This document shows, in pieces, positions 40,065-56,935 of a stretch of DNA of 64,000 nt. Numbering within the stretch: the stretch's first letter is position 1; each line of letters opens with the position of its first letter. The position numbers were made by a program, and so were the translations under genes. The notes below the pieces were generated by a model that was not told where the DNA came from, did not search any database, and saw only the letters and a list, made by a program, of their open reading frames with translations. Source of the DNA: Bacteroidales bacterium (GTDB lineage: Bacteria > Bacteroidota > Bacteroidia > Bacteroidales > VadinHA17); the NCBI GenBank assembly GCA_003142255.1, contig PLLO01000014.1:371-64370 (forward strand), written 5' to 3'.

Positions 40065-40901
40065 CTAATATTCGTCTGGCAGCTTGTTAAGCTGTGCCAG
40101 CGTGAACACAGGGCCATCCTTGCAGACGTAGACCTTCCCTACATTGCAGCGTCCGCATTTCCCGAAACCGCATTTCATGCGGTTCTCCAGCGTTGTAAAT
40201 ATATTTTCGTCACTAAAACCTAGCTTGGCAAGCACCGGAAAGGTGTACTTTATCATAACCGGAGGACCGCATACTATGGCTATTGTATCTTTTGAAGAAG
40301 GCGCAACCTTCTCGACAATTGTCGGTACGAAGCCTATCTCCCCTTTCCAGTCGGGAGATTCTCCTCCCGGGTCTACAGTCGTTATAAGCTTTACATCAGG
40401 ACGGCTGCCCCAGTCCTGCAGTTCATGCTTGTATACGAGATCCTTGGTGCTCCTGGCACCATAAATAATTGTAATATCCTTGAAATTATCGCGCAGGTCG
40501 AGAGCATTCCATATCACGCAGCGCATGGGCGGGAGAGCTATTCCCCCGGCAATGAAGAGAAGGCTTTTGCCTTTCCATTCATCAAGAGGAAAAGTGTTTC
40601 CGTATGGGCCCCGGAATCCTATTATGCTGCCCTCTTCGCAATCCGAAAGAGCATTGGTAACTTTGCCAGTCTGCCTGAATGTACATTCTATATATCCTTT
40701 TCGGGTCGGTGATGATGCAATGCAGAATGTCGATTCGCCAACTCCATAGACTGAATATTCACCGAATTGCCCGGCCCTGAAATCGAACTTATTCTGATCG
40801 TCTTCATTAACAAATCTGAGCATGAATGTCTTTACGCCGGGTGCCTCATAGGTTATCCTTTCAACCTTCATCTGGTACGGCATATACAGGTTGTTTGTCA
40901 T
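40065..40901 (-). CDS. flxA: FlxA-like FAD/NAD(H)-binding [2Fe-2S] oxidoreductase subunit
   Basis: A 278-residue ferredoxin-NADP+-reductase-fold protein. FAD region FRAGQFGEYSVYGVGESTFCIASSP; NAD(P)-binding loop FIAGGIALPPMRCVIW; VCGPPVMIKYTFPVL; C-terminal [2Fe-2S] cysteines 244, 249, 252 and 260 (KCGFGKCGRCNVG). It resembles PyrK and the gamma subunit of sulfhydrogenases/anaerobic sulfite reductase. As last gene of an hdrCBA-flxDCBA operon it is best explained as FlxA, which lets NAD(H) feed the Hdr complex. Start overlaps flxB by 4 nt. Specificity for NADH versus NADPH is not decided. Confidence 0.85.
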   Translation of the reverse strand: MTNNLYMPYQMKVERITYEAPGVKTFMLRFVNEDDQNKFDFRAGQFGEYSVYGVGESTFCIASSPTRKGYIECTFRQTGKVTNALSDCEEGSIIGFRGPYGNTFPLDEWKGKSLLFIAGGIALPPMRCVIWNALDLRDNFKDITIIYGARSTKDLVYKHELQDWGSRPDVKLITTVDPGGESPDWKGEIGFVPTIVEKVAPSSKDTIAIVCGPPVMIKYTFPVLAKLGFSDENIFTTLENRMKCGFGKCGRCNVGKVYVCKDGPVFTLAQLNKLPDEY

Positions 40902-41923
40902 AGAGCTGCCTCTTTTATTGAAGTTAGATGTTCAAGAATATTCATATCTGCCGGACATGCACGGCTGCATCGTCCACAGCCAGTGCATCCGTAAACGGAA
41001 AGCCTTTCAGGCATATAGGAGAATTTATGCATGATCCTTTGTCTCCATCGGGCTGATTGTACATTGCGCGGGTTATGGCCGGAAGTATGCAGGGTAAAGA
41101 GCGAGAACCCACATGAATCCCAGCATCTTACGCGCGATCCAAGTTTCCCGTGCGAATCATCCTGGATATCAAAGCATGCGCATGTAGGACATACATAAGC
41201 GCAAGCTCCGCAACCAATGCATCTAAGCGATTGCCCGACCCACTCCTCGCTATCGAAGAATTTTTCAAGCTTGCCATATATTTCCTTGTGGCTGAACTTA
41301 ACAGGTACATCTGCAAGGAATTTCTCCTTTTCAATATCCCCTGCTGCTTCAAAAAGTTCAGGTGAAAGAGCAATAACTTTCTCACCTTTCTCAGTCAGTA
41401 TCTCTGCCAGATAATCGCCATTCCCGCCAAGCTGCGTGAAAAGGATATCGCTGCCTTCGGTATTGCCGGGATTGCCTCCCACTGACGTGCAGAAACAGTA
41501 TTCATCGGTTTTGCTGCAGCTGAATCCGAGAACGGTGACTTTAGAAAGACGATTATTATAAATCTCATCCTTGTAATCCCAGTTGAATATTGAGCTCAGC
41601 TCTCCTATTCCCATTGCATCGCATGGCCTTATGCCCCAGAGCATTATCTGGGGGATCTGGTCAGGTTCAATTCCCTTAACTGACATTCCATCTGCATTTT
41701 TGGAGTAATCGAGTATCTTTTCGGTCCTGGGAAATGAAACTTCCTTCGAAGACTGGGTTGTCTGTATATAATCAGTTGCTATATCGCTGAATTTTTCAAT
41801 TTTGCGATAAGAGGTCCTGCCATTTCTTGAAAATGGGGCATAAACCTGTCTGTTGTCCCCCTTCAGTACTTCAAAAAGCTTTTCAAGCGAGCCTTTCCTG
41901 ACTAATCGTCTGTCACTCTTCAT
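40898..41923 (-). CDS. flxB: FlxB-like 4Fe-4S dicluster subunit
   Basis: A 341-residue iron-sulfur protein of the HydB/AsrA type. An N-terminal domain of about 230 residues includes ILDYSKNADG, GIRPCDAMGIGELSSIF and a cysteine loop (SCSKTDEYCFCTSVGGNP). The C-terminal ferredoxin part has two CxxCxxCxxxC sets at Cys235/238/241/245 and Cys313/316/319/323. It likely carries electrons between FlxA and FlxC. Start is 2 nt after the flxC stop. Translational coupling throughout supports a single complex. Confidence 0.83.
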   Translation of the reverse strand: MKSDRRLVRKGSLEKLFEVLKGDNRQVYAPFSRNGRTSYRKIEKFSDIATDYIQTTQSSKEVSFPRTEKILDYSKNADGMSVKGIEPDQIPQIMLWGIRPCDAMGIGELSSIFNWDYKDEIYNNRLSKVTVLGFSCSKTDEYCFCTSVGGNPGNTEGSDILFTQLGGNGDYLAEILTEKGEKVIALSPELFEAAGDIEKEKFLADVPVKFSHKEIYGKLEKFFDSEEWVGQSLRCIGCGACAYVCPTCACFDIQDDSHGKLGSRVRCWDSCGFSLFTLHTSGHNPRNVQSARWRQRIMHKFSYMPERLSVYGCTGCGRCSRACPADMNILEHLTSIKEAAL

Positions 41924-41925
41924 TG

Positions 41926-42726
41926 CTACATTATAAAATTATCCTTATCATCAGGTTTATATGTCGACATCAGGTGGTCGGCCTTGATAGAAGGCTGATA
42001 TCCTCCGAAATGTTCTTTTGCGTCAATCAGCATTCTCTTTGTAAGAAGGTTAAGAGGAATGCCAAGCGGGCAGGCATTATAGCATGCATCGCAATCGATG
42101 CACCGGCCTGCAAGATGGATCGCCCTCATCATATGCCATTCAAGATTGCCAAGATCATGTGATGGAACCGGAATCCATTGCGGCTGGTTGAATTCGACAG
42201 TGCACTTGTGGCAATAGCACATGGGGCAGGCAGCACGGCATGCATAGCATTTAAAGCATGGGGAAAGCTCCTCTATCCAGAAACTCCAGCGCTCAGAAGG
42301 AGTCATCTTATCGAGCTTCTCAAGCTTTTCGCTGTACTTTGCTTCAATCTCAATTGTGTATTTGTGGACAAATGCTTCAACCTCTGCAAGATCCTTGAAT
42401 TCAATCATTTTGCTTTCAGGCGTGATTCCCAGAACAAGAAGATTGCTATCATTTACCTGGAATTCCGAAGCCAGTTGAATTATAGCTCTCATCACCGGCA
42501 GTGTGGCTGTAATGGCCATTTTTCCTTTGCCTTTTACTTCTGCTTTTGTAATATATGTAGCAAGGTTCATTACACACCTGCTGTCAAAAATAAGTTTATC
42601 GGCATCCTTAGGTTCTATGGCAAACAGAGCCCGTGTCTTATCGGCGCTACCATTTTCATAACCGATCACCACTTTTACAGTTCCAGCCTCAAGAAGCTCT
42701 TTTGCCCGTTTTATCAGTTCATCCAT
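41926..42726 (-). CDS. flxC: FlxC-like 4Fe-4S protein
   Basis: A 266-residue iron-sulfur protein. Residues 1-130 form an alpha/beta domain (TVKVVIGYENGSADKTRALF, NLATYITKAEVKGKGKM). Two [4Fe-4S] sets follow: Cys157/160/163/167, with an additional MCYCHKC run, and Cys209/212/215/219 (CIDCDACYNACP). This arrangement fits FlxC of the Hdr-Flx system and is related to the iron-sulfur half of F420-dependent hydrogenase beta subunits. It overlaps flxD by 8 nt and leads flxB by 2 nt. Confidence 0.8.
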   Translation of the reverse strand: MDELIKRAKELLEAGTVKVVIGYENGSADKTRALFAIEPKDADKLIFDSRCVMNLATYITKAEVKGKGKMAITATLPVMRAIIQLASEFQVNDSNLLVLGITPESKMIEFKDLAEVEAFVHKYTIEIEAKYSEKLEKLDKMTPSERWSFWIEELSPCFKCYACRAACPMCYCHKCTVEFNQPQWIPVPSHDLGNLEWHMMRAIHLAGRCIDCDACYNACPLGIPLNLLTKRMLIDAKEHFGGYQPSIKADHLMSTYKPDDKDNFIM

Positions 42727-43168
42727 TGATCACCTCCTTTACCGGTTTTTTAGCAACTTTCTGATATTCTTCGTAAGGTCCCAGTTCGCGGATTGCAGCA
42801 ACTGTTGAGTTGACAATGTCGGCCCATTTTGCACCTTCAGCTGCTGACACCCATGAGAATTTGATCCTCCTGATATCAATACCTATGAAGTCGCATAATG
42901 AACGGAACATTATCCATCTCCGCCTTGCATGGAAGTTTCCTGAGGTATAATGACAATCGTTGGGATGACATCCGGAAACAATAATACCGTCAGCACCTTC
43001 ATCAAAAGCCTTGACCAGGAGCATATAATCGATTCGCCCTGTACAGGGAAACCTCACTATACGTACATTTGAGGCATATTTTATGCGGCTGGTACCTGTC
43101 AGGTCTGCACCTGCGTAGGTACACCAGTTGCATACAAATGCCACAATTTTTGGTTCAAACTCAGCCAT
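42719..43168 (-). CDS. flxD: FlxD/MvhD-like [2Fe-2S] delta subunit
   Basis: A 149-residue MvhD-family protein. Five cysteines match the family: CNWC (13, 16), FPCTGRID (42) and GCHPNDCHY (67, 72). MvhD-type subunits hold a [2Fe-2S] cluster and dock a donor module onto HdrA. In methanogens that donor is a [NiFe] hydrogenase; none is present here, and the Flx subunits take its place. Immediately downstream of hdrA (12 nt) and overlapping flxC. Confidence 0.88.
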   Translation of the reverse strand: MAEFEPKIVAFVCNWCTYAGADLTGTSRIKYASNVRIVRFPCTGRIDYMLLVKAFDEGADGIIVSGCHPNDCHYTSGNFHARRRWIMFRSLCDFIGIDIRRIKFSWVSAAEGAKWADIVNSTVAAIRELGPYEEYQKVAKKPVKEVING

Positions 43169-43180: not shown

Positions 43181-45184
43181 TTAATATTCATTCAATAAAG
43201 CCATCACTTCAGTATACATCTGTTCATGTGTATAACCTTGCAGGTCAATCGATTTTGTGCGACAGAAAGCGACGCATGTGCCGCATCCCTGGCATAGTCC
43301 CGGGTTCACCCTGGCAAGTGTTTTAATTACCTCTCCTGCCCTGTTTTTGATCTCCTCCTTCTCAATAGCCTGGTAGGGGCATGCCGAGACACAGAGGAAA
43401 CAACCAACACATGATGAATAAACCGGAGGAGCCATGCGGTTCACAACAGCGATCAGAGGATCCCGGGTCAGTTCGTCCTGCGAGAAGAGACATGCAACCT
43501 TAACTGCAGCGCCTGATGCCATTGAAACTGATTCAGGAATATCGCGAGGCGACTGGCAAGCTCCCGCAAGGAAAATACCTGCAGTATTCGTCTCAACCGG
43601 TTTCAGTTTCGGATGAGCCTCTGCAAAGAATTTATATGCATCATAAGAGACGTGAAGCTTCTGAGCAAGAGCTTCTGCATCGCTGTTGGCGACTCCTGCA
43701 GTTGCCAGAACCACCATATCAGCTTCTATATCGACAGGCATCGCCCCGAGAAGCGTATCAACACCCTTGACTATCAGCTTACCGTTCTTCTCATATATCC
43801 TTGAGACTCTTCCACGCACATAATTAACACCATCTTCCTCTATTGCGCGTCTTACAAACTCTTCATAGTTCTTTCCACCTGCCCTGATATCCATATAGAA
43901 TACATAGGATTTGCCTCCGTGGACCTTGTGCTGGTAAAGCATTGCATGCTTGGCAATATACATGCAGCATATCTTTGAGCAGTATGGAATTCCTTTAGCT
44001 TCATCGCGCGAGCCGGCACAAGCCACAAACACTATATTCTGCGGTACTTTGCCGTCAGAAGGTCTGCGTATCTCGCCAAGTGTCGGCCCTGATGCTGATG
44101 CCAGCCTTTCAAACTGGAGGCCGGTGATCACATCCGGATATTTGCCATAACCGTATTCCGGGAAGAAATCGGGCTGTTTGACAGAGAAACCTGTAGCAAG
44201 AACAATGGCACCTATCTCAACTTCCTCAATAGTATCTTCCTGGTCGAATCTGATTGCCTGTATAGGACACACTTTCTCGCATATCCGGCATTTACCCTTT
44301 AAATAATAGGTACAATGCTCCCTGTCGATGACGGGCTTGTTTGGAACTGCCTGCGGAAAGGGAACATATATTGCGGTCCTCATGCCGAGACCCTCGTTGA
44401 ATTCACTTGGTATTTTCTTTACCGGGCATTTGGTTGTGCAGAGCCCGCAGCCTGTACATAGTTTCTCATCTATGCTCTTTGATTTCCTTCTGATCTTTAC
44501 CTTGAAATTTCCGATAAACCCTTCAACGCTTTCAAGCTCGGCATATGAGTATAATGTAATATTGGGATGCTGTGCAACTTCAACCATCCTTGGAGTAAGA
44601 ATGCACTGGGAGCAGTCGAGCGTCGGAAATGTCTCAGAAAGCTGCGACATATGGCCGCCTATGGAAGGATCCTTCTCTATCAGAATAACCTTGTGGCCGG
44701 TATTTGCAATGTCGAGGCTTGCCTGGATGCCCGCAATGCCTCCACCAATTACCAGTGCGGTTTTTGTGACAGGCACCTTTATTGCATTCAGAGACTGGTT
44801 ATACTTCACCTTTTCAACCAGTATCCTTACGAGGTCTATGGCCTTTTCGGTGGTAGCCTCTCCTTTTTCATGGACCCATGAAACATGCTCACGGAGGTTG
44901 GCCATTTCGCACATATAAGGATTCAAGCCAGCCTCAGCACATGCTTTTCTGAATGTAGGTTCATGCATCCTCGGCGAGCAGGCTGCAACGACCACACCTG
45001 TAAGTCCCTTTTCTTTAATCGCGCTCTTGATAAGACTCTGCCCGGGGTCGGAACACATGTACTTATAATCGACGCTGTAAGCTACACCGTCTAATTTACC
45101 TGATGTCTCCGCAACCCTTGCACAATCGACCGTTGCACTTATATTCTCACCGCAATGACAAACGAATACTCCGATTTTTGACAT
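43181..45184 (-). CDS. hdrA: Heterodisulfide reductase subunit A-like, FAD and multi-[4Fe-4S]
   Basis: A 667-residue HdrA of full methanogen-type length. N-terminal cysteine domain (VCHCGENI, C9/C11/C21, CS at 69-70), FAD loop VIGGGIAGIQASLDIA (145-160), a DCSQC pair at about 191-194, then four ferredoxin-type sets at Cys243/246/249/253, 291/299/302/306, 592/595/598/602 and 631/634/637/641. HdrA is the flavin site of electron bifurcation in HdrABC complexes, with ferredoxin docking at its iron-sulfur domains. It sits between hdrB and flxD. Whether this copy bifurcates depends on residues near the flavin that need a structural alignment. Confidence 0.92.
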   Translation of the reverse strand: MSKIGVFVCHCGENISATVDCARVAETSGKLDGVAYSVDYKYMCSDPGQSLIKSAIKEKGLTGVVVAACSPRMHEPTFRKACAEAGLNPYMCEMANLREHVSWVHEKGEATTEKAIDLVRILVEKVKYNQSLNAIKVPVTKTALVIGGGIAGIQASLDIANTGHKVILIEKDPSIGGHMSQLSETFPTLDCSQCILTPRMVEVAQHPNITLYSYAELESVEGFIGNFKVKIRRKSKSIDEKLCTGCGLCTTKCPVKKIPSEFNEGLGMRTAIYVPFPQAVPNKPVIDREHCTYYLKGKCRICEKVCPIQAIRFDQEDTIEEVEIGAIVLATGFSVKQPDFFPEYGYGKYPDVITGLQFERLASASGPTLGEIRRPSDGKVPQNIVFVACAGSRDEAKGIPYCSKICCMYIAKHAMLYQHKVHGGKSYVFYMDIRAGGKNYEEFVRRAIEEDGVNYVRGRVSRIYEKNGKLIVKGVDTLLGAMPVDIEADMVVLATAGVANSDAEALAQKLHVSYDAYKFFAEAHPKLKPVETNTAGIFLAGACQSPRDIPESVSMASGAAVKVACLFSQDELTRDPLIAVVNRMAPPVYSSCVGCFLCVSACPYQAIEKEEIKNRAGEVIKTLARVNPGLCQGCGTCVAFCRTKSIDLQGYTHEQMYTEVMALLNEY

Positions 45185-45220: not shown

Positions 45221-46063
45221 TTAGACTGTTACTTTAACAAAATGCCTGTTAAGACCAAGCTCTTTCCTGTCGAGACCTACAGCAAGTCCGAGAGCCTGGG
45301 TTATATACAGAACAGGTATATCGACCTTCTCTCCCAGGTACTTATTAATTTCCTTTCTGCGCATATCGAGGTTTGAGTGACACATCGGGCAGGCAACTAT
45401 TATAGCTTCTGCACCACGATCTTTGGCATCGCCTACAATCATTCCCGAAAGCTTTCCAACTGAAGGGGTCCTGGAAATAGATAGTCCGGCACCGCAGCAT
45501 TCTGTCTTAAACGCCCAATCGATCGGCGTTGCTCCGGCCTTCAGCATTACCTCATCCATTGACTGGGGATCTTCCTCACGGTCGAACTTAAGTATTTCGT
45601 GAGGTCTCACCAGAAGGCATCCGTAATAACATGCCACTTTATGGTCAAACGGTTTCACAACCTTTCCCTCGAGCTTTGGAGTGATATATTTGTCGAGCAT
45701 CTGGATGATGTTCAGGATTGTCACGGAACCTTTATACTCCATCCCGTTCACCTCCGAAATTCTATCCTTAAGCTCCTTGTCCTTTGCAAGTTCATATTGC
45801 GTAACGGTAAGCCTGCTGTAACATGCAGCGCACGGAACGACAACTTCTGTCAGTCCCTGCTTTTCAGCCAGGGAGAGTATCCTTGCAGGCAGGGCAAATG
45901 AGAGTTCCCTGTTCATATTATGTGCTGCTGTTGCCCCGCAGCAGTTCCAGTCCTTTATCTCTTCGATGGTGATATCGAATGCCTTTGCAACAGCAAGAAC
46001 TGATTCAGCATATTCGCGGGAAGATCCTTTAAGCGAGCAGCCTGGATAAAATCCGAGTGTCAT
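45221..46063 (-). CDS. hdrB: Heterodisulfide reductase subunit B-like, CCG-domain protein
   Basis: A 280-residue HdrB. Both CCG motifs are complete: Cys9, Cys41-Cys42, Cys78, Cys81 and Cys145/149, Cys189-Cys190, Cys225, Cys228. In methanogen HdrB these bind two noncubane [4Fe-4S] clusters that reduce CoM-S-S-CoB. A bacterium lacks that heterodisulfide, so the partner must be another disulfide (DsrC is proposed for sulfate reducers; no dsrC is seen here). Four nt follow hdrC. Confidence 0.92.
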   Translation of the reverse strand: MTLGFYPGCSLKGSSREYAESVLAVAKAFDITIEEIKDWNCCGATAAHNMNRELSFALPARILSLAEKQGLTEVVVPCAACYSRLTVTQYELAKDKELKDRISEVNGMEYKGSVTILNIIQMLDKYITPKLEGKVVKPFDHKVACYYGCLLVRPHEILKFDREEDPQSMDEVMLKAGATPIDWAFKTECCGAGLSISRTPSVGKLSGMIVGDAKDRGAEAIIVACPMCHSNLDMRRKEINKYLGEKVDIPVLYITQALGLAVGLDRKELGLNRHFVKVTV

Positions 46064-46067: not shown

Positions 46068-46640
46068 TTAGTCTTTATGTTTCTTATTTGTTTTCCTGAA
46101 GATTGATGCCATACCTGATCGGTCCTTAATCATTTCAGGGAAGATACCAAGCTTGCCTCTCTTCATCATTGGCAGGGCAAGATCCATGTCGTCAAGAATT
46201 TTCAGGGTCCTTGTTTTATAATCGGCAAGGAGACCTATTTCATATAGTCTTCCGGTATATCTTATCGAATCAAGGAAGGATTTATGGAAAGCAATGATCT
46301 CCTTTGCTTTGCGATTAGTTTTTTTCTCTAAGAGTGATTTCTGGCGAAGCTGGTCCATCATTTTGGGGATATCGATGCTCATGGGGCAGCGCGCAAAGCA
46401 CATTTCGCATGTGAGGCATACCCAGATGGTAAATGAGCGCAGCACTTTCTCTTCAAGCTCCGGCCTCCCGGTCTGAAGCATCCTCATGACAAGGCTTGGC
46501 GGATAGTCCATTTCTCCGGCAAGCGGACATCCGGCTGTGCATTTCCCGCACTGGTAGCATCTGGTGACCTTTACATCAGATTGTTCAAGCAATTCCGCTC
46601 CAAGTTCGGTAAGTGCTGAATGATGATTATCTGAGCTCAT
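46068..46640 (-). CDS. hdrC: Heterodisulfide reductase subunit C-like ferredoxin protein
   Basis: A 190-residue iron-sulfur protein with two [4Fe-4S] sets, Cys28/31/34/38 (CYQCGKCTAGCP) and Cys75/78/81/85 (CLTCEMCFARCP), linked by helices as in HdrC. The C-terminal 90 residues are basic and helical. It passes electrons from HdrA to HdrB. First gene of the leftward seven-gene operon, divergent from nuoA with a 285-nt gap. Confidence 0.92.
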   Translation of the reverse strand: MSSDNHHSALTELGAELLEQSDVKVTRCYQCGKCTAGCPLAGEMDYPPSLVMRMLQTGRPELEEKVLRSFTIWVCLTCEMCFARCPMSIDIPKMMDQLRQKSLLEKKTNRKAKEIIAFHKSFLDSIRYTGRLYEIGLLADYKTRTLKILDDMDLALPMMKRGKLGIFPEMIKDRSGMASIFRKTNKKHKD

Positions 46641-46738
46641 AGTGTATATTTTAATTTCTAAAAGAAGGATCGTAAAAAGTGGCTGAAAATTAGCAATTAA
46701 AAATCAGAAAATAACATGAAAAAAATCATATTGCCGGA

Positions 46739-46773
46739 CCAGGACTTAATTTCTTATGTCTTGGTTTTTTTTT
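46739..46773 (+). terminator. Terminator-like hairpin between divergent hdrC and nuoA
   Basis: CCAGGACTTA-ATTTC-TTATGTCTTGG pairs over 10 of 11 positions (one G-T pair, one T-T mismatch) and is followed by nine T. This is the form of an intrinsic terminator on the plus strand, but no plus-strand gene precedes it. It may end a short unannotated RNA or act as an attenuator or operator. Confidence 0.5.
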
Positions 46774-46886
46774 GAAAATAAAGTTAAATTTGGCAAGGAC
46801 TAAAGACAATATACAGGTCTGCTCTTTTAGTGATAATTATCATTCTTAATAACTGTTAATAATTTCACAAAGAATAAAAGAAATTA

Positions 46887-46894
46887 TATTTTTG
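46887..46894 (+). promoter_or_regulatory. -7 promoter box for the nuo operon
   Basis: TATTTTTG, full TAnnTTTG match, with TTTC 20 nt upstream (46863-46866) as a near -33 box. Transcription would begin near 46900, about 26 nt before nuoA. Confidence 0.65.
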
Positions 46895-46925
46895 TGCGGC
46901 TTTACGAAAAACTAAATTCCGGCTT

Positions 46926-47276
46926 ATGAATAATCAATGGCTTGTTTTATTCTTCCTCGTCGGGGCTCTATTTGTAGGTTTGGTTCTTATCCTTGCCAAT
47001 TTAATCGCCCCCAGATCATTCAATCCCCAGAAATTTGAACCTTATGAATGCGGTATTCCAACGCAGGGAGTTACCTGGCTTCAGTTCAACGTCGGATATT
47101 ATATGTTCGCAATCCTTTTTCTTGTTTTCGACGTGGAAACAGTACTGGTGTTTCCCTGGGCCGTAGTGATGAAAGAGGTTGGAATGGTTGCATTTATTGA
47201 GATATTGATATTCTTTTTCATACTGGGCCTTGGCTTATTATATGCCTGGAAAAAACATGCGCTTATATGGGAATAA
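46926..47276 (+). CDS. nuoA: NADH-quinone oxidoreductase subunit A
   Basis: A 116-residue membrane subunit with three helices (about 5-27, 62-84, 90-108). The conserved loop [12 protein letters not shown] after helix 1 (about 37-48, including the cysteine used in deactivation studies) and the [22 protein letters not shown] helix are clear. First gene of an eleven-gene operon. nuoB begins 10 nt before its stop codon or, using a second ATG, 5 nt after it. Confidence 0.96.
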
Positions 47277-47856: not shown

Positions 47857-48309
47857 ATGGATAAAATACAATTAGCAGAATTTTTTAAATCGCTCGACAG
47901 CGATCTTGAGGTAAAGGAAGGGAAACAATACACAGAAGTAACCGTCCCTCCATCGAAAATACATTCATTGGCCAGTCAACTCAGAGAGAAAGAAGAGGCT
48001 TTGTTTGATTTCCTGGATTGTATTACCGGTGTGGACTATGGACATGATCTGGGTGTTATCTATCACCTTCGCTCTACAAAATACCAGCATATGGTAGTGA
48101 TTAAAAGCCGTACTGCCGACAGAGAGAATCCTCTATTCGATTCTGTGTCTGATATATGGGAAACTGCTAATCTGCATGAAAGAGAAGCATTTGACCTGCT
48201 GGGAATAAAATTTGCAAATCATCCTGACCTGAGAAGACTTTTTCTTAACAGTTCATGGGGGTTTCCGCTGAGAAAAGACTATGTTGATAATGACATGATT
48301 ACCTGGTAA
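47857..48309 (+). CDS. nuoC: NADH-quinone oxidoreductase subunit C
   Basis: A 150-residue peripheral 30-kDa-type subunit, at the short end of its family. Conserved blocks: FDFLDCITGVDY, VIYHLRSTKYQHMVVIKS, VSDIWETANLHEREAFDLLGIKFANHPDLRRL, and WGFPLRKDY. It is separate from NuoD, unlike the fused NuoCD of E. coli. Four nt precede nuoD. Confidence 0.95.
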   Translation: MDKIQLAEFFKSLDSDLEVKEGKQYTEVTVPPSKIHSLASQLREKEEALFDFLDCITGVDYGHDLGVIYHLRSTKYQHMVVIKSRTADRENPLFDSVSDIWETANLHEREAFDLLGIKFANHPDLRRLFLNSSWGFPLRKDYVDNDMITW

Positions 48310-49486: not shown

Positions 49487-49488
49487 AT

Positions 49489-50628
49489 ATGTTAACAAGC
49501 TTTGGCATTATTAATTATCTCTCAGCACAATCAGGACCATGGTGGAGAGTTTTTTACGATTTTACATCACTCACCAAAAACATTGATGCCGGCCTGCATA
49601 ACGCCATGTCGCCATTCTGGACAACTGTTACGGAAATGGTTATTGTCGGAATTCTTTTCCTTCTGTTTTATGCTGTTATCGGACTTTTCCTGGTATATGC
49701 AGAAAGAAAAGTATGCGCATTCATTCAAAACAGACTTGGACCGAACCGTCTTGGTCCGTTTGGGATTTTCCAGACAGTTGCCGACCTTATAAAGCTTCTT
49801 TTCAAAGAGTTGATCCCAATCAAAAATGCAGATCATTTTCTGTTTAACCTGGCGCCATACATTGTAATTATTGTGAATTTTATGGTCCTTGCTGCTATCC
49901 CATACGCATTGGGATTGCATGCAGTTGACTTAAATATTGGTATATTCTATGTCATTGCAGTTTCATCGATGAGTGTTATTGGAGTTCTCCTGGCCGGATG
50001 GTCAAGCAACAGTAAATATTCACTTTTAGGTGCAATGAGAAGCGGCGCCCAGATAGTCAGCTACGAACTGTCTGTCGGACTTGCGCTGGCTACGGTCGTA
50101 ATACTTGCAGGATCAATGCAGCTTTCAGTAATTGTTGAAGGACAAAGAACGGGCTGGTTTATTTTCAAAGGACATATTCCTGCTGTTATTGCATTTGTGA
50201 TTTACATTATTGCAGGTACGGCTGAGACTAACCGCGGGCCTTTCGATCTGGCTGAAGCTGAATCTGAACTTACAGCCGGTTACCATACTGAATACTCGGG
50301 TATCAAATTTGCCTTCTTCTACCTTGCCGAATTTATTAATATGTTCATTGTGGCATCAATTGCTGCCACGATATTCCTTGGAGGATGGATGCCACTGCAT
50401 TTTGGTGCCGATAACGGATTCAACAGGATTATGGATTTTATCCCTCCGGTAATATGGTTCTTTGCTAAAACATTTTTTCTTATATGGGTCATAATGTTGT
50501 TCAAATGGACATTCCCCCGGTTGAGAATTGATCAGTTGCTTACACTTGAATGGAAATACTTACTGCCAATTAATATTGTTAATTTATTGATTATGGCATT
50601 TATAGTCCTGATGGGCTGGCATTTTTAG
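49489..50628 (+). CDS. nuoH: NADH-quinone oxidoreductase subunit H
   Basis: A 379-residue membrane subunit with about eight helices that forms the quinone chamber entrance. Conserved loops are intact: [44 protein letters not shown] and [18 protein letters not shown]. The N-terminus has an added 45-residue segment before the first conserved helix. Its presence in intact form argues the complex reduces quinone. Confidence 0.96.
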
Positions 50629-50662: not shown

Positions 50663-51145
50663 ATGAGAAGCATAATAAATTATCTGAAGGACATATTTTT
50701 AGGTGTCAGGTCGCTTCTGAAAGGTATGAAAGTCACATCAAGATACTTCTGGAGTCCAAGATCCATTGTAACTGAGAAATATCCTGAGAACCGGAAAACT
50801 CTTGTAATGTTAGAACGTTCAAAAGGCGAGGTGATAATGCCTCATAATGATAAAAACGAGCACCATTGCACCGGTTGCGGGATCTGTCAGATTAATTGTC
50901 CTAACGGGTCGATTGAAGTTATTTCAAAAATAATTGATACTGAAGACGGCAAGAAGAAGAAGATAATTGATAAACATATCTACAAATTAGGTCAGTGTAC
51001 TTTCTGTGGATTATGTGTAAAAACTTGTCCTTCGAATGCTCTTGCCTTTTCTACGAAATTTGAACATGCTGTCTTTAACAAGGCTCTTCTGATAAAAGTG
51101 TTAAATAAACCCGGTTCTCAATTAATGAAAGGAGTTGAACAATGA
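50663..51145 (+). CDS. nuoI: NADH-quinone oxidoreductase subunit I
   Basis: A 160-residue ferredoxin-like subunit with clusters N6a and N6b: Cys69/72/75/79 (CTGCGICQINCP) and Cys112/115/118/122 (CTFCGLCVKTCP). In complexes lacking the NADH module this is the natural entry for electrons from ferredoxin. An amphipathic N-terminus (IINYLKDIFLGVRSLLKGM) lies on the membrane arm. It overlaps nuoJ by four nt. Confidence 0.95.
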   Translation: MRSIINYLKDIFLGVRSLLKGMKVTSRYFWSPRSIVTEKYPENRKTLVMLERSKGEVIMPHNDKNEHHCTGCGICQINCPNGSIEVISKIIDTEDGKKKKIIDKHIYKLGQCTFCGLCVKTCPSNALAFSTKFEHAVFNKALLIKVLNKPGSQLMKGVEQ

Positions 51146-51681
51146 TCGCTAACCAGATAATGTTTTTTCTTTTATCAGCTATGATAATTGTCTTTTCAGT
51201 TCTGACAGTCACAAGCCGGAAGATATTGAGAGCTGCCGTATATCTTCTTTTGGTACTGGTATCTACTTCGGGACTCTATTTCATGCTGAACTATCAATTC
51301 CTTGCAGCGATCCAGCTTACGCTTTATGCAGGGGGCATCGTCGTACTGATAATTTTCTCAATCCTGCTTACAAGCCATATCAGCCAGAAATTTGAACCGA
51401 CAGGCTGGAAAAAATCGTTGCTTTCGGCTCTTGCATCTGCTGCCGGGGCAATACTGGCAATTACAACAATCCTCGACTTCAAATTTGGAGCATCAAGAGA
51501 AGCCGCTATGGAAGTAGACATGCACGCCATCGGTAAAAGCCTTCTTTCTCTCGATTACGATGGTTATATTCTGCCATTCGAAGTAATCTCCATACTGCTG
51601 CTCGCAGCAATGATTGCAGGAATTGTGATTGCAAAAAAAGGCGGTCCGGCTGACCAGGAATCTCAAAACTTAAAACAGTAA
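51142..51681 (+). CDS. nuoJ: NADH-quinone oxidoreductase subunit J
   Basis: A 179-residue membrane subunit with five helices. The pi-bulge helix region is YFMLNYQFLAAIQLTLYAGGIVVLIIFSILLT, the most conserved part of NuoJ. The loop between helices 4 and 5 is long (about 105-140). It couples quinone reduction to the antiporter-like arm. Overlaps nuoI and is 4 nt before nuoK. Confidence 0.93.
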   Translation: MIANQIMFFLLSAMIIVFSVLTVTSRKILRAAVYLLLVLVSTSGLYFMLNYQFLAAIQLTLYAGGIVVLIIFSILLTSHISQKFEPTGWKKSLLSALASAAGAILAITTILDFKFGASREAAMEVDMHAIGKSLLSLDYDGYILPFEVISILLLAAMIAGIVIAKKGGPADQESQNLKQ

Positions 51682-51685
51682 TAAA

Positions 51686-52003: not shown

Positions 52004-52028
52004 TTAAAATTTACGGGAGATATATTAT

Positions 52029-53951
52029 ATGATAAATTTCACATACACCGTCTGGATCCTGATCATCCCCTTTATCATGTTCATTTTCCTGGGACTTGCA
52101 GGTCATAAGATCGGACCAAAGCTTTCAGGATTACTCGGAACCGGAGCACTTGCTGTAATAACTGCACTATCGTACATTACTGCGTATAAATATTTCTTTG
52201 CGACACCAAAAGCAGGCGATGTCTTTAAAGCTATTCTCGCCGCAAACACTACCTGGCTGCAGTTTACTGACAAGCTTCATATAGACATAGGAGTACTGGT
52301 CGATCCCATTTCCGTAATGATGCTCATCGTCGTCACAACTGTCTCTTTCATGGTCCATATCTACAGTACCGGCTATATGAAAGGTGAAAAAGGCTATGAG
52401 CGTTACTTTGCATTTCTTTCACTTTTTTCCTTTTCAATGCTGGGACTGGTTGTAGCACCAAATATCTTCCAGATGTACATTTTCTGGGAGCTTGTGGGTG
52501 TCTCTTCATACCTGCTTATAGGATTTTACTATGAGAAGCCATCGGCTGTGGCAGCGTCAAAGAAAGCATTTATTGTGACAAGGTTTGCAGACCTCGGTTT
52601 CCTGATCGGCATACTGCTTCTCTCCTTTCATACAAAAACTTTTGATTTCATAACGCTTACCGATCCATCCGGACCGGCAATAGCACAGGCAGGCGGTGCA
52701 TCATTCCTGGGCCTTTCGGTAATTACATGGTCGATGATCTTCGTTTATCTGGGAGGTGCCGGAAAATCGGCAATGTTCCCATTCCATATATGGCTTCCTG
52801 ATGCAATGGAGGGCCCTACACCGGTATCGGCTCTTATACATGCTGCCACTATGGTGGTGGCCGGAGTATACCTCGTTGCCAGGATGTTCCCGGTTTATTC
52901 CCTTGCTGCACCAGTTGCACTGAAGGTGGTGGCTTATGTCGGGGGATTCTCATCATTGTTTGCCGCAATTATTGCATGCACCCAGACAGATATAAAAAGG
53001 GTGCTCGCATACTCTACGATATCGCAAATCGGTTACATGATGCTGGCACTGGGAGTTTCAGGATATGGAGGCCATGAGGGACTCGGATACATGGCATCAA
53101 TGTTCCACCTGTTCACACATGCATTGTTCAAAGCGCTGTTGTTCCTTGGCGCAGGTGCTATCATTCATGCAGTTCATACTAACCTGATGACAGAAATGGG
53201 AGGACTTCGCAAGTACCTTCCGATTACCCATCTGACATTCCTTATTGCTTGCCTTACCATTGCCGGAATTCCGCCTTTTTCAGGGTTCTTCAGCAAAGAT
53301 GAGATACTTGCCGCAGCATTTCAAAGCAACAAGATCCTGTTTGCGGTTGAATATGCCGTAGCAGGGCTTACTGCATTTTACATGTTCAGGCTTTACTTCA
53401 ATATTTTCTGGGGAAAAGAGACTCAATATCAGCATACACCTCATGAGGCACCATTTTCAATGACCATACCACTGATAATACTTGCTCTGGGAGCAGTATT
53501 TGCCGGGTGGATTCCTTTCAATAAGCTTGTTACAAGCGATGGACAGGCTTTTGAATCATCGATTGAATGGGGTGTTGCAATTCCATCGATACTGATCGGG
53601 GTTCTTGGAATTTTCGTTGCCATGGTAATGTACAGGAAGGAAAACAATATACCGGAGAGGCTGGCAGCTACATTTAAAAATACCTATAAGCTGGCTTACC
53701 ATAAGTTTTATATCGATGAATTTTATCTTTTTGTTACCAAAAAAATCATATTCAGATATATATCAGAACCGATAGCATGGTTCGACCGGCATATTATTGA
53801 CGGCACAATGAATTCAATAGCGACGGTTACCCAGGTGGTATCATTCAGGATCCGGAAATTCCAGTCAGGACAACTGCAGCAATATGCATTTGTCTTTATT
53901 TCTGGGGCAGTTTTGCTGGCTGTGCTAATGATCTATATATGGTACTGGTAG
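52029..53951 (+). CDS. nuoL: NADH-quinone oxidoreductase subunit L
   Basis: A 640-residue antiporter-like subunit of Nuo type (about 15 helices plus the lateral helix HL near 530-600). Key segments: FWELVGVSSYLLIGFYYEKPSA with the TM5 glutamate, KSAMFPFHIWLPDAMEGPTPVSALIHAATMVVAG, ACTQTDIKRVLAYSTISQIGYMMLALG with the TM8 lysine, and HLFTHALFKALLFLGAGAIIH. It pumps protons at the end of the membrane arm. Confidence 0.96.
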   Translation: MINFTYTVWILIIPFIMFIFLGLAGHKIGPKLSGLLGTGALAVITALSYITAYKYFFATPKAGDVFKAILAANTTWLQFTDKLHIDIGVLVDPISVMMLIVVTTVSFMVHIYSTGYMKGEKGYERYFAFLSLFSFSMLGLVVAPNIFQMYIFWELVGVSSYLLIGFYYEKPSAVAASKKAFIVTRFADLGFLIGILLLSFHTKTFDFITLTDPSGPAIAQAGGASFLGLSVITWSMIFVYLGGAGKSAMFPFHIWLPDAMEGPTPVSALIHAATMVVAGVYLVARMFPVYSLAAPVALKVVAYVGGFSSLFAAIIACTQTDIKRVLAYSTISQIGYMMLALGVSGYGGHEGLGYMASMFHLFTHALFKALLFLGAGAIIHAVHTNLMTEMGGLRKYLPITHLTFLIACLTIAGIPPFSGFFSKDEILAAAFQSNKILFAVEYAVAGLTAFYMFRLYFNIFWGKETQYQHTPHEAPFSMTIPLIILALGAVFAGWIPFNKLVTSDGQAFESSIEWGVAIPSILIGVLGIFVAMVMYRKENNIPERLAATFKNTYKLAYHKFYIDEFYLFVTKKIIFRYISEPIAWFDRHIIDGTMNSIATVTQVVSFRIRKFQSGQLQQYAFVFISGAVLLAVLMIYIWYW

Positions 53952-53975
53952 TTAAATAGATAATGTAAGAACACT

Positions 53976-55481
53976 ATGAATATTTTAACTTTTTTTGTCG
54001 TAATTCCTGTTCTCACCATTACCGGGATAATATTAGTAAAGGATATTAAGCGGGTAAAGCTGGTGGCATCAATTGGTATGGGGCTGCAACTTCTCCTGGC
54101 TGCTTTACTGGTAGTACTGTATATTATGCAGCGCAGGGCAGGGAATACTGAAGAAATGCTCTTCATCAAGGACTTTGTGTGGTTTAAGAGCCTGAACATT
54201 CATTTTGCCCTCGGAGTGGATGGCATCTCAGTAGCAATGATAGCACTTACATCTGTAGTTGTCTTTGCAGGTGTCTTTGCTTCGTGGGAGATGGCATTTC
54301 TAACCAAAGAGTTTTTCGTATCACTTATATTGCTGGCTACAGGGGTATTCGGATTCTTCATCTCGATCGATCTCTTTACCATGTTCCTCTTCTATGAGCT
54401 GGCAGTGATCCCGATGTACCTGCTTATAGGCGTATGGGGAAGCGGGCCGAAGGAGTACTCGGCGATGAAGCTTACCCTGATGCTGATGGGAGCATCAGCC
54501 ATCCTTTTTGTAGGAATACTTGGGATATATTTCCACTCCGCTCCTGACGGAGAACCCCTTACCTTCAATATACTCAGGATCTCAAATTACGTAATACCGA
54601 TCCAGGCACAGCGGGTATTCTTCCCTATGACATTTGTCGGTTTTGGTGTGCTGGGAGCGTTATTCCCTTTCCATACATGGTCACCTGACGGCCATTCATC
54701 AGCTCCCACGGCAGTTTCAATGCTTCATGCAGGCGTACTTATGAAGCTTGGAGGTTACGGAGCCTTCAGGGTGGCAATCTTCCTGATGCCTGAAGCTGCA
54801 AAAGAAATGTCATGGATATTCATTATCCTTACCTCAATCAGCGTTATTTATGGTGCCTTCGGGGCAATGGTCCAGAAGGATCTCAAATATATCAATGCAT
54901 ACTCATCTGTGAGCCATTGCGGACTGGTGTTATTTGCAATTTTGATGATGAACAAGACGGCAATGACCGGAGCAGTTCTCCAGATGATCTCTCATGGACT
55001 GATGACGGCACTCTTCTTTGCTCTGATAGGAATGATCTACGGAAGGACACATACAAGACTGATCAACGAAATGGGAGGTCTGATGAAGATCATCCCCTTC
55101 CTGTCGGTATGTTACGTGATAGCCGGCCTGGCATCCCTCGGACTTCCGGGGTTAAGCGGATTTGTTGCTGAAATGACAATATTCGTTGGCGCTTTCCAGC
55201 ATCCGGATCTTTTCCACAGGATCACGACAATAATCGCGATCACTTCTATTGTCATAACTGCCGTTTATATCCTGAGGGTTATAGCGATCCTGCTCCTCGG
55301 GCCTTCACGGGATAACCAGTATGAACACATGAATGATGCAAAATGGTATGAAAAGATATCTACAGTTATATTGATTGCATGCGTTGCTGCCATTGGACTT
55401 GCTCCATTCTGGCTTTCATCCATGATCGGAACAAGCATGCAGCCTGTAATAGATAAGATACTTGCAGTCAATCCATTCTGA
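53976..55481 (+). CDS. nuoM: NADH-quinone oxidoreductase subunit M
   Basis: A 501-residue antiporter-like subunit with 14 helices. FLFYELAVIPMYLLIGVWG carries the TM5 glutamate, GALFPFHTWSPDGHSSAPTAVSML and MVQKDLKYINAYSSVSHCGLVLFAIL hold the central and TM8 lysine segments. The last two thirds match NuoM from other phyla. 24 nt after nuoL and 29 nt before nuoN. Confidence 0.96.
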   Translation: MNILTFFVVIPVLTITGIILVKDIKRVKLVASIGMGLQLLLAALLVVLYIMQRRAGNTEEMLFIKDFVWFKSLNIHFALGVDGISVAMIALTSVVVFAGVFASWEMAFLTKEFFVSLILLATGVFGFFISIDLFTMFLFYELAVIPMYLLIGVWGSGPKEYSAMKLTLMLMGASAILFVGILGIYFHSAPDGEPLTFNILRISNYVIPIQAQRVFFPMTFVGFGVLGALFPFHTWSPDGHSSAPTAVSMLHAGVLMKLGGYGAFRVAIFLMPEAAKEMSWIFIILTSISVIYGAFGAMVQKDLKYINAYSSVSHCGLVLFAILMMNKTAMTGAVLQMISHGLMTALFFALIGMIYGRTHTRLINEMGGLMKIIPFLSVCYVIAGLASLGLPGLSGFVAEMTIFVGAFQHPDLFHRITTIIAITSIVITAVYILRVIAILLLGPSRDNQYEHMNDAKWYEKISTVILIACVAAIGLAPFWLSSMIGTSMQPVIDKILAVNPF

Positions 55482-55510
55482 TTTATTTAAGTTAACAGGA
55501 ACAAAAAGAT

Positions 55511-56935
55511 ATGAGTCTACAAAGTTTATTAATAATGCGTCATGAATTGCTGCTTGCAGTTGCGGCGATATTTATCCTGACTGCTGAAATATTCATCGAT
55601 CCTGCCCGAAAGAAGAATATAAGCCTTATTTCAATTGTGCTCTTCGCGATTGTGACAATTGCAGGATTCCTTCCGTTCAAATTAACCGGAACATTGTTTG
55701 GCGGCATGTATGTTTCGAGCAATGTATCAACTCTTATGAAGAACATCCTGAACATCGGGGTGCTGATTATACTGATACAGTCGGTTACATGGCTGAGAAA
55801 GGATGAGAATTCAGACAGGGTGAGTGAATATTTCATTCTTATCATGTCGACTCTTATCGGTATGGATTTCATGATCTCAGCTGGTCATTTCCTTATGTTC
55901 TATATCGGGCTTGAACTTGCAACTATTCCTGTCGCCGCTCTTGCAGCTTTCGAAAGGTACAAGAACAAATCTGCAGAGGCCGGTATAAAGCTCATTCTCA
56001 TATCTTCGTTATCATCCGGCGTGCTTTTATATGGATTATCAATGATCTACGGTACTACAGGATCTCTCTATTTCTTTGAAGTATCCCAGCATTTCCCCGG
56101 CTTTAACCTTCAGATACTGGGGTTCATCTTCTTTTTTGCCGGGATGGCTTTCAAGATATCGATCGTTCCTTTCCATCTGTGGACCGCTGACGTGTATGAA
56201 GGAGCTCCTGTGAACATCACATCATTTCTCTCTGTTATTTCAAAGGGTGCTGCAATATTCATCCTTATCATCATACTATATGCCATATTCCCTTCAATCA
56301 TGGAGACATGGCAGAAGACTATCCTTGTCACCTCTATTCTTACGATGACTATTGGTAACCTCTTTGCAATCAGGCAGCAGAATATTAAACGGTTCCTGGC
56401 TTTCTCTTCCATTTCACAGGCAGGGTATATCCTTGTCGGAATGGTTGGCGGAAATCAGCTTGGGATGGCTTCGGTTATATATTATATCCTTGTGTACATA
56501 TTCTCTAACCTTGGTGCCTTCGGGGTCGTAACAGCAATATCAAATGCAACGGGAAAAGAAAATATTGACGATTATAACGGTCTCTACAAGACGAATCCCA
56601 AACTGAGCCTGATAATGATGCTGGCTCTCTTTTCCCTTGCCGGAATACCGCCTCTGGCCGGATTCTTCGGAAAATTCTTCCTCTTTACTGCAGCTGCAGA
56701 AAAAGGGTTTTACTTCCTTGTTTTAATTGCGGTAATTAATACAATAATATCACTCTATTATTACCTGCTTGTTGTAAAGGCGATGTTTATAAATAAAAAC
56801 GATGATCCGATCGTGAATTTCAGGAGCGATTTTCCGACCCGGTCAGCTCTTTTAATCTGCGTTGCCGGCATTTTTGTCACCGGTTTTGCAAGTATAATTT
56901 TTGAATTAATTAAAGGACTGAGTTTTGGCAACTAA
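55511..56935 (+). CDS. nuoN: NADH-quinone oxidoreductase subunit N
   Basis: A 474-residue antiporter-like subunit. FYIGLELATIPVAALAAFERYKNKSAEAGIK, FKISIVPFHLWTADVYEGAPVNITSFLSVISKG and RQQNIKRFLAFSSISQAGYILVGM are the NuoN-type conserved helices with their charged residues. It closes the operon. No nuoE, nuoF or nuoG is found before, within or after the eleven genes in this window. Confidence 0.96.
   Translation: MSLQSLLIMRHELLLAVAAIFILTAEIFIDPARKKNISLISIVLFAIVTIAGFLPFKLTGTLFGGMYVSSNVSTLMKNILNIGVLIILIQSVTWLRKDENSDRVSEYFILIMSTLIGMDFMISAGHFLMFYIGLELATIPVAALAAFERYKNKSAEAGIKLILISSLSSGVLLYGLSMIYGTTGSLYFFEVSQHFPGFNLQILGFIFFFAGMAFKISIVPFHLWTADVYEGAPVNITSFLSVISKGAAIFILIIILYAIFPSIMETWQKTILVTSILTMTIGNLFAIRQQNIKRFLAFSSISQAGYILVGMVGGNQLGMASVIYYILVYIFSNLGAFGVVTAISNATGKENIDDYNGLYKTNPKLSLIMMLALFSLAGIPPLAGFFGKFFLFTAAAEKGFYFLVLIAVINTIISLYYYLLVVKAMFINKNDDPIVNFRSDFPTRSALLICVAGIFVTGFASIIFELIKGLSFGN

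What the first reader, a model, noticed from the sequence alone, without database searches (positions are those of the whole stretch)
40065..56935. Divergent Hdr-Flx and truncated complex I may form one electron circuit
Seen: the two operons are back to back with a 285-nt shared control region. Inference: Hdr-Flx could reduce ferredoxin from NADH while reducing a disulfide, and the 11-subunit Nuo could oxidise that ferredoxin with proton pumping; run in reverse, quinol-driven ferredoxin formation is possible. This would replace the missing NADH module by a soluble bifurcating complex. I do not know of a described case of this exact gene pairing in Bacteroidota.
Basis: inference. Interest (0 to 1): 0.7.

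Follow-up and report, generated by a model that had tools for sequence, protein, structure and literature searches.

The report
Bifurcating-reductase operon paired with truncated complex I
An uncultured bacterium keeps the genes of a soluble electron-splitting enzyme right beside those of a respiratory proton pump that lacks its usual NADH-oxidising end, and some relatives show the same pairing in other gene orders, which offers a testable candidate for the unknown electron source of this kind of pump.

Summary
Observation confirmed: hdrCBA-flxDCBA (46640-40065, -) and nuoABCDHIJKLMN (46926-56935, +), 285 nt apart. Of 393 genomes of the order, 43 carry Flx; 42 of these also carry a NuoD of the window's type. 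In 7 of 43 (5 families) the two sets are adjacent, in three layouts: divergent (window), hdr-flx then nuo in one direction, and nuo nested between hdrA and flxD. The adjacent cases are not one HdrA clade; one has a foreign-type hdr-flx. Both divergent promoters carry a TGA-N6-TCA repeat at near-constant spacing from the -7 element in four related genomes. The divergent layout was seen only in the window and three close relatives. Most likely Hdr-Flx shares a ferredoxin pool with the 11-subunit Nuo, reversibly; it adds an input rather than replacing a lost NADH module. The disulfide is unknown. All electron transfer is inferred.

The parts
40065..40901 (-). FlxA: FAD/NAD(P)H-binding electron-transfer subunit (HydG/PyrK-like) with DHODB-type Fe-S domain
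   Evidence: Pfam NAD_binding_1, FAD_binding_6, DHODB_Fe-S_bind; sulfhydrogenase 1 gamma 9nez_C, E 6e-62; below NCBIfam cut-offs
40898..41923 (-). FlxB: HydB/AsrA-like Fe-S subunit
   Evidence: Pfam Fer4_22; sulfhydrogenase beta 9nez_B, E 2e-39; below NCBIfam cut-offs
41926..42726 (-). FlxC: Fe-S protein with FrhB/FdhB-like fold in its N-terminal part
   Evidence: only weak sequence matches; model of low confidence (mean pLDDT 63, C-terminal part mostly under 50) whose best matches are chains E of two solved Hdr supercomplexes, 7bkb_E (E 3e-7) and 8rvu_E (E 1e-6; named formate dehydrogenase beta subunit)
42719..43168 (-). FlxD: MvhD-like subunit
   Evidence: PF02662 162 bits; 7bkb_F, E 9e-47
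43181..45184 (-). HdrA: FAD subunit of the electron-bifurcating type
   Evidence: 5odc_A over residues 3-662, E 4e-205; below NCBIfam cut-offs
45221..46063 (-). HdrB: two CCG motifs
   Evidence: PF02754, two stretches; motif cysteines align with 8rvu_b, E 4e-40
46068..46640 (-). HdrC: [4Fe-4S] dicluster subunit
   Evidence: Pfam Fer4 dicluster domains; HdrC models E 2e-16, below cut-off
46641..46925 (.). 285-nt divergent control region
46717..46728 (.). TGA-N6-TCA inverted repeat on the hdr side; centre 34 nt from centre of the hdr -7-like element in 4 of 4 divergent genomes
46685..46692 (-). hdr -7-like element TAATTTTC (TAnnTTTG type; motif recalled)
46831..46842 (.). TGATAATTATCA inverted repeat on the nuo side; centre 53-55 nt from centre of the nuo -7 element in 4 of 4 divergent genomes
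46887..46894 (+). nuo -7 element TATTTTTG
46926..47276 (+). NuoA
   Evidence: PF00507
47267..47827 (+). NuoB
   Evidence: over NCBIfam cut-offs
47857..48309 (+). NuoC (separate from NuoD)
   Evidence: PF00329
48313..49437 (+). NuoD
   Evidence: PF00346 295 bits; closest solved relatives are complex I 49-kDa subunits and NDH-1 subunit H
49489..50628 (+). NuoH
   Evidence: PF00146
50663..51145 (+). NuoI, two [4Fe-4S] motifs; likely electron entry point (inference)
51142..51681 (+). NuoJ
   Evidence: PF00499
51686..52003 (+). NuoK
   Evidence: PF00420
52029..53951 (+). NuoL
   Evidence: PF00361, PF00662
53976..55481 (+). NuoM (PF00361; M or N by position)
55511..56935 (+). NuoN (PF00361; M or N by position)

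Best explanation
The locus encodes two enzymes that share one ferredoxin pool. (1) A FlxABCD-HdrABC-type complex takes electrons from NADH through FlxA, passes them by FlxB/FlxC/FlxD to the HdrA flavin, and splits them: one branch reduces a still unknown disulfide at HdrB, the other reduces ferredoxin. (2) The 11-subunit Nuo oxidises that ferredoxin at NuoI and reduces menaquinone with proton pumping. Both halves can run backwards when quinol is plentiful. In the window's own genome the pair does not replace a lost NADH module: a complex I with NuoEFG lies elsewhere. It is a second, probably anaerobic, input. Shown: gene content, linkage in three layouts, co-occurrence, paired inverted repeats at the two promoters. 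Inferred: all electron transfer steps, direction, ferredoxin as carrier, and the regulator.
For: Subunits with cofactor motifs; FlxC model resembles chains of two solved Hdr supercomplexes. Co-occurrence 27/28 versus 70/219, 42/43 in the larger sample. Outside the order, 17 Flx genomes were tested (4 of the 80 hits in family f129, and 13 of 13 hits in other families): 17 of 17 have a NuoD (best E 2e-93 to 2e-114, 45-49% identity). Adjacency in 7 of 43 in three layouts: divergent G000 (also L033, L034, L036); collinear G232, G122, G065, G215 with gaps of 103, 1079 (holding one DHOD-like gene), 207 and 154 nt; nested hdrCBA-nuo-flxDCBA in G088 (one contig) and, as two contigs that fit, G184, hdrA-nuoA gaps 70 and 83 nt. 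Adjacent HdrA rows are not one clade, nominal p-AU 4e-41 (4e-11 without G215); at least 6 changes of state on 36 rows. G215 HdrA groups with genomes outside the order, 98/93, while its NuoA-D falls with in-order genomes (81/84, moderate). Among 52 hdr-flx loci the commonest neighbours in the list (4 or more loci) are nuo genes (nuoJ/K/L in 10). RnfC not found in 6 of 7 genomes with adjacent sets, own included. Paired promoter repeats in 4 of 4 divergent genomes.
Against: No expression, protein or activity data. In 30 of 43 Flx genomes the sets were found neither adjacent nor within 21 kb (about ten of these contigs are too short to tell), and in none of the 17 tested Flx genomes outside the order was a NuoD seen near the hdr-flx. 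70 Flx-free genomes have this NuoD, so other donors must exist. Only 1 of 6 sampled genomes of the window's family has Flx; G200 there has this Nuo without Flx. Rnf is present in G232, one of the adjacent cases, and in 7 more of the 32 genomes tested. The disulfide is unknown: no DsrC match in the own genome, G184 or G232. With potentials given in PMC9304861 (NADH -280, Fd -500, heterodisulfide -140 mV) NADH-driven bifurcation is slightly uphill unless ferredoxin is drained or the disulfide is more positive. In D. vulgaris the operon neighbour of flx-hdr is an alcohol dehydrogenase, not nuo (PMC6491731, passage).
Confidence: 0.58

Rival explanations
1. Shared regulon only: both operons belong to the anaerobic state and sit under a common regulator, but do not exchange electrons through one carrier.
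For: Both promoters carry TGA-N6-TCA repeats; nuoA upstream regions carry the repeat in 12 of 22 rows, hdrC regions in 9 of 59, so the site is commoner at nuo; TonB/ExbD-type genes also recur near hdr-flx in 7 of 52 loci.
Against: Nested hdr-nuo-flx and tight collinear arrangements go beyond co-regulation; apart from a DHOD-like gene (4 loci), no other redox enzyme was recognised in the list of neighbours shared by 4 or more loci (several entries there were not annotated).
Confidence: 0.2
2. Reverse circuit: quinol and proton-motive force drive Nuo-11 to make reduced ferredoxin, and Hdr-Flx confurcates ferredoxin plus a dithiol into NADH, or the ferredoxin feeds biosynthesis.
For: Near-zero driving force of NADH bifurcation with the potentials in PMC9304861; reverse operation of Flx-Hdr was proposed by Ramos et al. 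as told in PMC6491731 (passage); many Flx hits in family f129 (80 of the 95), which I take for green sulfur bacteria (family name and lifestyle recalled).
Against: No direct evidence for direction; the forward, NADH-oxidising direction is the one first discussed for Desulfovibrio and Syntrophomonas (PMC6491731, PMC6687939, passages).
Confidence: 0.14
3. Chance or drift of two common anaerobic operons, or co-transfer on mobile DNA.
For: Divergent layout seen only in close relatives; most Flx genomes unlinked.
Against: 7 of 43 adjacent versus 0.0017 expected per genome; three layouts, not one clade.
Confidence: 0.06

Closest known systems
FlxABCD-HdrABC (Ramos et al. 2015; paper itself not seen; known here from passages in PMC6687939 and PMC6491731)
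   Same: All seven subunits side by side; proposed NADH oxidation with ferredoxin and disulfide (DsrC) reduction, possibly reversible
   Different: In D. vulgaris linked to adh1 in one operon (PMC6491731); here beside, or in relatives around, a truncated nuo operon; gene order hdrC to flxA (reverse order in Desulfovibrio is recalled); no DsrC found in the own genome
11-subunit complex I of Bacteroides fragilis (PMC7002350, passages), Desulfitobacterium (PMC11238625, passages) and Desulfovibrio-clade strains (PMC6491731, passages)
   Same: nuo operon without nuoEFG; donor drawn as unknown Xred, or ferredoxin proposed; in PMC6491731 one strain has both Flx-Hdr and NuoABCDHIJKLMN ('Fd?/MQ'), so co-occurrence in a genome is already on record
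   Different: A candidate donor-making enzyme is encoded next to it; no such linkage in the passages seen
Thermodesulfovibrio nuoABCDHIJKLMN directly downstream of pyruvate:ferredoxin oxidoreductase (PMC5165239, passages)
   Same: A ferredoxin-producing enzyme encoded beside an 11-subunit nuo
   Different: The partner is PFOR, not a bifurcating Hdr-Flx
Nuo-Bfu (PMC9304861, passages)
   Same: A bifurcating/confurcating module proposed to feed complex I inside one operon
   Different: BfuABC replaces NuoEFG inside a 14-subunit set; here the module is HdrA-based
Two complex I sets in Ca. Thermonerobacter (PMC6338057, passages); Ignavibacteriae Ch128a (PMC7509429, passages)
   Same: A set with and a set without nuoEFG in one genome; PMC7509429 suggests ferredoxin for the latter
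   Different: No Hdr-Flx linkage in the passages seen

Membership tests
FlxABCD-HdrABC | HdrA with FAD and Fe-S domains of the bifurcating type | tested here: met
   near full-length alignment to 5odc_A; bifurcation itself not testable
FlxABCD-HdrABC | HdrB with intact CCG motifs | tested here: met
FlxABCD-HdrABC | HdrC dicluster subunit | tested here: met
   Fer4 dicluster domains; HdrC models below equivalog cut-offs
FlxABCD-HdrABC | FlxA FAD/NAD subunit, FlxB and FlxC Fe-S subunits, FlxD MvhD-like, in one gene run | tested here: met
   FlxC identified by position, conserved cysteines and a low-confidence fold
FlxABCD-HdrABC | NADH-dependent disulfide and ferredoxin reduction | not testable with these tools
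   needs enzyme assay
FlxABCD-HdrABC | DsrC as disulfide partner (proposed for Desulfovibrio; not treated as defining, since PMC6687939 reports a Syntrophomonas with the cluster but no DsrC) | tested here: not met
   no PF04358 match in the own genome (98% complete); matches in 12 of 29 Flx genomes of the order tested
11-subunit complex I (Nuo-11) | nuoA,B,C,D,H,I,J,K,L,M,N present | tested here: met
11-subunit complex I (Nuo-11) | no nuoE,F,G in the operon | tested here: met
   gene run 46926-56935 followed by a sensor kinase
11-subunit complex I (Nuo-11) | ferredoxin as electron donor | not testable with these tools
   needs assay
Nuo-Bfu | BfuBC (NuoF/NuoE-related) module inside the nuo operon | tested here: not met
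   each of the 11 nuo ORFs is accounted for by another subunit

The most novel reading that the evidence does not exclude
HdrABC-FlxABCD is an exchangeable electron-input module of the 11-subunit complex I in this order: HdrA/FlxD dock, permanently or transiently, near NuoI/NuoB, so that NADH and ferredoxin jointly feed menaquinone through an HdrA flavin. This would be an HdrA-based bifurcating or confurcating complex I, unlike both NuoEFG and BfuABC. The nested hdrCBA-nuoABCDHIJKLMN-flxDCBA gene runs of family f89 are the best genetic hint.
Probability: 0.12. Interest if true: 0.85.

Novelty: new variant of a known kind. Interest (0 to 1): 0.62.

Why it matters
What feeds the 11-subunit complex I is an open question: PMC11238625 (passages) says that a search for a common donor protein was not successful and that the enzyme may accept several partners, and PMC7002350 (passages) draws the donor in Bacteroides as an unknown Xred. 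Gene-level pairing with a bifurcating NADH/disulfide reductase, found in five families and three layouts, gives one named, testable candidate. It also says how an anaerobe could use NADH electrons to run a pump whose NADH-to-menaquinone span is small: from -280 to -74 mV gives about 40 kJ per electron pair, while ferredoxin at -420 to -500 mV gives about 67-82 kJ (hand calculation; potentials from PMC9304861, except -420, recalled).

Tried and rejected
Rejected: anticorrelation with nuoEFG (the opposite found); DsrC as the general disulfide partner; the adjacent cases as one HdrA clade, although repeated loss from an older linked state cannot be excluded by counts of changes; the idea that f89 has Flx without Hdr (first look at L046/L050; some searches showed hdrCBA on the other side of nuo). 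Led nowhere: searches for the pairing in print (one search found no paper; some searches listed papers in whose opened passages no pairing is told); PMC12361115 (no Hdr, nuoEFG or Bacteroid in the text searched); PMC12054007 (its one Flx mention is in the references); PMC7382037 and PMC7082340 (the passages shown name Flx only in references); PMC4046663, PMC8671834 and PMC6129605 (passages on other Hdr/nuoEFG arrangements).

Caveats: the promoter pattern was defined after looking at the alignment and allows a C or G at the end of the -7 element; in 20,000 random spacers of like composition the two spacings occurred at 0.00055 and 0.0004 and never together; the four genomes are relatives. Fisher tests ignore kinship. 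'NuoD of the window's type' means E<=1e-100, read off the list (97 of 247 genomes); 26 further genomes with weaker matches only (to 1e-60) were counted as lacking it; absence of EFG beside it was seen only in the fetched loci. Six weak FlxC matches (E about 1e-4) of 34 were dropped. One search left out 5 of 41 rows whose contig was too short or that lack this Nuo. The FlxC model has mean pLDDT 63 from 8 sequences.
Full report
WHAT IS THERE. The window lies in a 3.73-Mb, 98% complete genome. Its closest named relative, L033, is titled a Bacteroidales MAG (fen_964). HdrA aligns nearly end to end with solved methanogen HdrA (5odc), HdrB keeps the cysteines of both CCG motifs, FlxD is MvhD-like, and FlxA and FlxB are closest to the gamma and beta subunits of a solved sulfhydrogenase. 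The Hdr and Flx proteins stay below NCBIfam's equivalog cut-offs. FlxC has no family over cut-off; twelve of its cysteines are invariant in the window and seven relatives. A model of it, good only in the N-terminal half (mean pLDDT 63), is closest to chain E of two solved Hdr supercomplexes, formate dehydrogenase-Hdr and Elp-Hdr (7bkb_E, 8rvu_E), subunits that in those complexes feed Hdr (recalled). The nuo cluster has NuoC and NuoD apart and no E, F, G.

THE OWN GENOME HAS A SECOND COMPLEX I. On another contig (C2, about 82.7-97 kb) lie nuoA, nuoB, a fused nuoCD, nuoE, nuoF, nuoG, nuoH, nuoI and nuoJ-N; NuoE, F, G, CD and I pass curated cut-offs, the others are recognised by similarity or Pfam. 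So the cell is not short of an NADH module. In the same genome no RnfC (E<=1e-30) and no DsrC was found.

CO-OCCURRENCE. In 247 genomes of the order, 28 have FlxC at E below 1e-20 (six weaker matches, E about 1e-4, were dropped) and 97 have NuoD at E<=1e-100. Both: 27; Flx only: 1 (G054); Nuo only: 70; neither: 149. NuoF over cut-off: 19 of 28 with Flx, 10 of 219 without; within the 97, 19 of 27 against 6 of 70. A larger draw of 393 genomes gives 43 with Flx, of which 42 have this NuoD. Of 18 of the 95 examined further (one in the order, 4 of the 80, and 13 of 13 others), 18 have a NuoD and 12 have nuoF over cut-off. In the window's own family the sample holds six genomes: own has both sets, G200 the Nuo only, and G105, G663, G722 and G780 neither. 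Flx thus nearly always comes with this Nuo, not the reverse.

LINKAGE IN THREE LAYOUTS. Divergent: the window, and L033, L034, L036 (L035 ends inside hdrB). Collinear hdrCBA-flxDCBA-nuoA..N: G232, G122, G065, G215 with 103, 1079, 207 and 154 nt between flxA and nuoA; the 1079 nt in G122 hold one DHOD-like gene in the same direction. In G065, nuoH, flxA and flxD each match in two pieces, perhaps frameshifts or assembly errors. Nested hdrCBA-nuoABCDHIJKLMN-flxDCBA: G088 on one contig; G184 on two contigs that end between nuoD and nuoH, so its joining is inferred; hdrA-nuoA gaps 70 and 83 nt, nuoN-flxD gaps 388 and 428 nt. In one direction but farther apart: nuo then hdr-flx about 8-10 kb on in G188, G093 and G712 (family f94, with a diverged Hdr-Flx), and hdr-flx then nuo about 15-21 kb on in G718 and G195 (family f101). 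In G770 (f94) NuoD and HdrC are about 50 kb apart. G054 lacks this Nuo. The remaining 30, G770 included, are apart, on other contigs, or on contigs too short to tell (about ten). Outside the order, in none of the 17 tested Flx genomes was a NuoD seen near hdr-flx; in one (G285, L094) a different nuoJKL piece, 35-42% identical, lies about 4.6 kb away.

HOW OFTEN DID IT ARISE. On the HdrA tree adjacent rows are scattered. Holding the 10 adjacent rows as one clade costs 401 log units (nominal p-AU 4e-41), 9 without G215 cost 197 (4e-11); at least six changes of state are needed on 36 rows. Counts cannot tell gain from loss, so an old linked state with many losses is possible, but three layouts require rearrangement in any case. 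G215 is the strongest single case: its HdrA groups with f128/f146 genomes outside the order (98/93), its Hdr-Flx proteins are 35-64% identical to the window's, while six of its Nuo subunits are 71-74% identical, much like those of the other linked genomes; its NuoA-D falls with G122, G065, G088, G184, G195 and G036 (81/84). A foreign-type hdr-flx sits before nuoA. In 52 hdr-flx loci (flanks of unequal length), nuoJ, nuoK and nuoL are the commonest neighbours (10 loci: three of the divergent group, six collinear or nested, and L094), then TonB/ExbD-type genes (7).

CONTROL REGION. The divergent spacers run from about 285 to about 500 nt and align poorly, but both ends keep islands. Near nuoA: TGATAATTATCA (TGACAATTATCA, TGATAAATATCA in relatives) with its centre 53-55 nt before the centre of TATTTTTG/TAATTTTG. 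Near hdrC: TGA-N6-TCA with its centre 34 nt before TAATTTTC/TATTTTTC/TAATTTTG. Four of four genomes have both. With the transcription start a few bases after the -7 element these would be near -61 and -41, the two usual places of CRP/FNR-type activators; that reading, and the Bacteroidota -7 motif TAnnTTTG, are recalled. TGA-N6-TCA alone is common (32 in the window, 27 expected), so the weight lies on the spacing and conservation. Upstream of nuoA the repeat occurs in 12 of 22 rows, upstream of hdrC in 9 of 59 (two genomes appear twice among the latter, one nuoA row holds only 40 nt, and the nuoA rows of nested and collinear runs may lie inside an operon).

MECHANISM. From family knowledge, HdrA splits electron pairs: NADH electrons enter by FlxA and FlxD, one goes to HdrB and a disulfide, one to ferredoxin. 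Ferredoxin at -420 to -500 mV to menaquinone at -74 mV frees about 67-82 kJ per pair; NADH at -280 mV frees about 40 kJ. PMC9304861 argues in the same way that menaquinone reduction by NADH is too weak for four protons (passages). With heterodisulfide at -140 mV the mean of the two acceptors is -320 mV when ferredoxin is at -500, slightly below NADH; draining ferredoxin by Nuo-11 would turn it downhill. This gives a reason for pairing, and for reversibility. None of it is shown by the sequence.

KNOWN OR NOT. Both parts are known. The 11-subunit Nuo without EFG is described in Bacteroides fragilis, where deletion did not change NADH:quinone activity and the donor is unknown (PMC7002350, passages), and in Desulfitobacterium (PMC11238625, passages). 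Flx-Hdr and NuoABCDHIJKLMN in one genome are on record for a Desulfovibrio-clade strain, where flx-hdr is compared with the adh1-linked operon of D. vulgaris (PMC6491731, passages). A ferredoxin-making enzyme beside such a nuo is known for PFOR in Thermodesulfovibrio (PMC5165239, passages), and BfuABC inside nuo is proposed (PMC9304861, passages). I found no report of Hdr-Flx genes paired with nuo in ten searches of open papers, of which 15 papers were opened at passages; subscription papers, among them Ramos et al. 2015 itself, were not seen.

Noticed in passing
L084 (G000:C19:20000-39900), 1161-12687, minus strand: A group 4 [NiFe]-hydrogenase (Mbh-like) cluster with nickel-ligand-type motifs RICGIC and DPCYCC, MbhD/E and antiporter subunits, headed by a HydB/HydG (FlxB/FlxA-like) pair: a possible NAD(P)H-linked membrane hydrogenase.
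   Followed up: partly
L083 (G000:C2:107900-127800), 9472-14072, minus strand: A 433-aa HdrA core, a 641-aa HdrA and a QmoC-like gene in a row, a Qmo-like set in a genome where no DsrC was found.
   Followed up: no
L048:7129-8163, L037:12741-13775, also L053 and L054: A DHOD-like flavoprotein gene (name by eye) recurs beside hdr-flx in 4 loci, directly after flxA in L048 and L037, in L048 between flxA and nuoA; FlxA itself resembles the DHOD electron-transfer subunit.
   Followed up: no
window 38973-40041 and L112:4424-5415; L036, L037, L049, L061, L066, L067: ExbB/ExbD/TonB-type genes recur near hdr-flx in several lineages.
   Followed up: no
window 46926-51145 versus L033: HdrA is 99% identical to that of fen_964 but NuoC only 69%, NuoI 79% and NuoD 82%, which hints at allele replacement within nuo.
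   Followed up: no
L033, spacer between nuoA and hdrC (about 5566-6116): About 200 extra nucleotides with inverted repeats, seen by eye, in the divergent spacer, absent in the window, perhaps a small mobile repeat.
   Followed up: no
L107 (G054:C79), L062 (G182:C101): hdrA and flxD not side by side in two genomes; in G054 two similar short ORFs follow hdrA, in G182 other genes precede flxD.
   Followed up: partly
L127 (G770:C44:52600-72500), 15107-19897: A second, distant hdrCBA-flxD-like gene run (22-43% identical) upstream of the main hdr-flx cluster.
   Followed up: no
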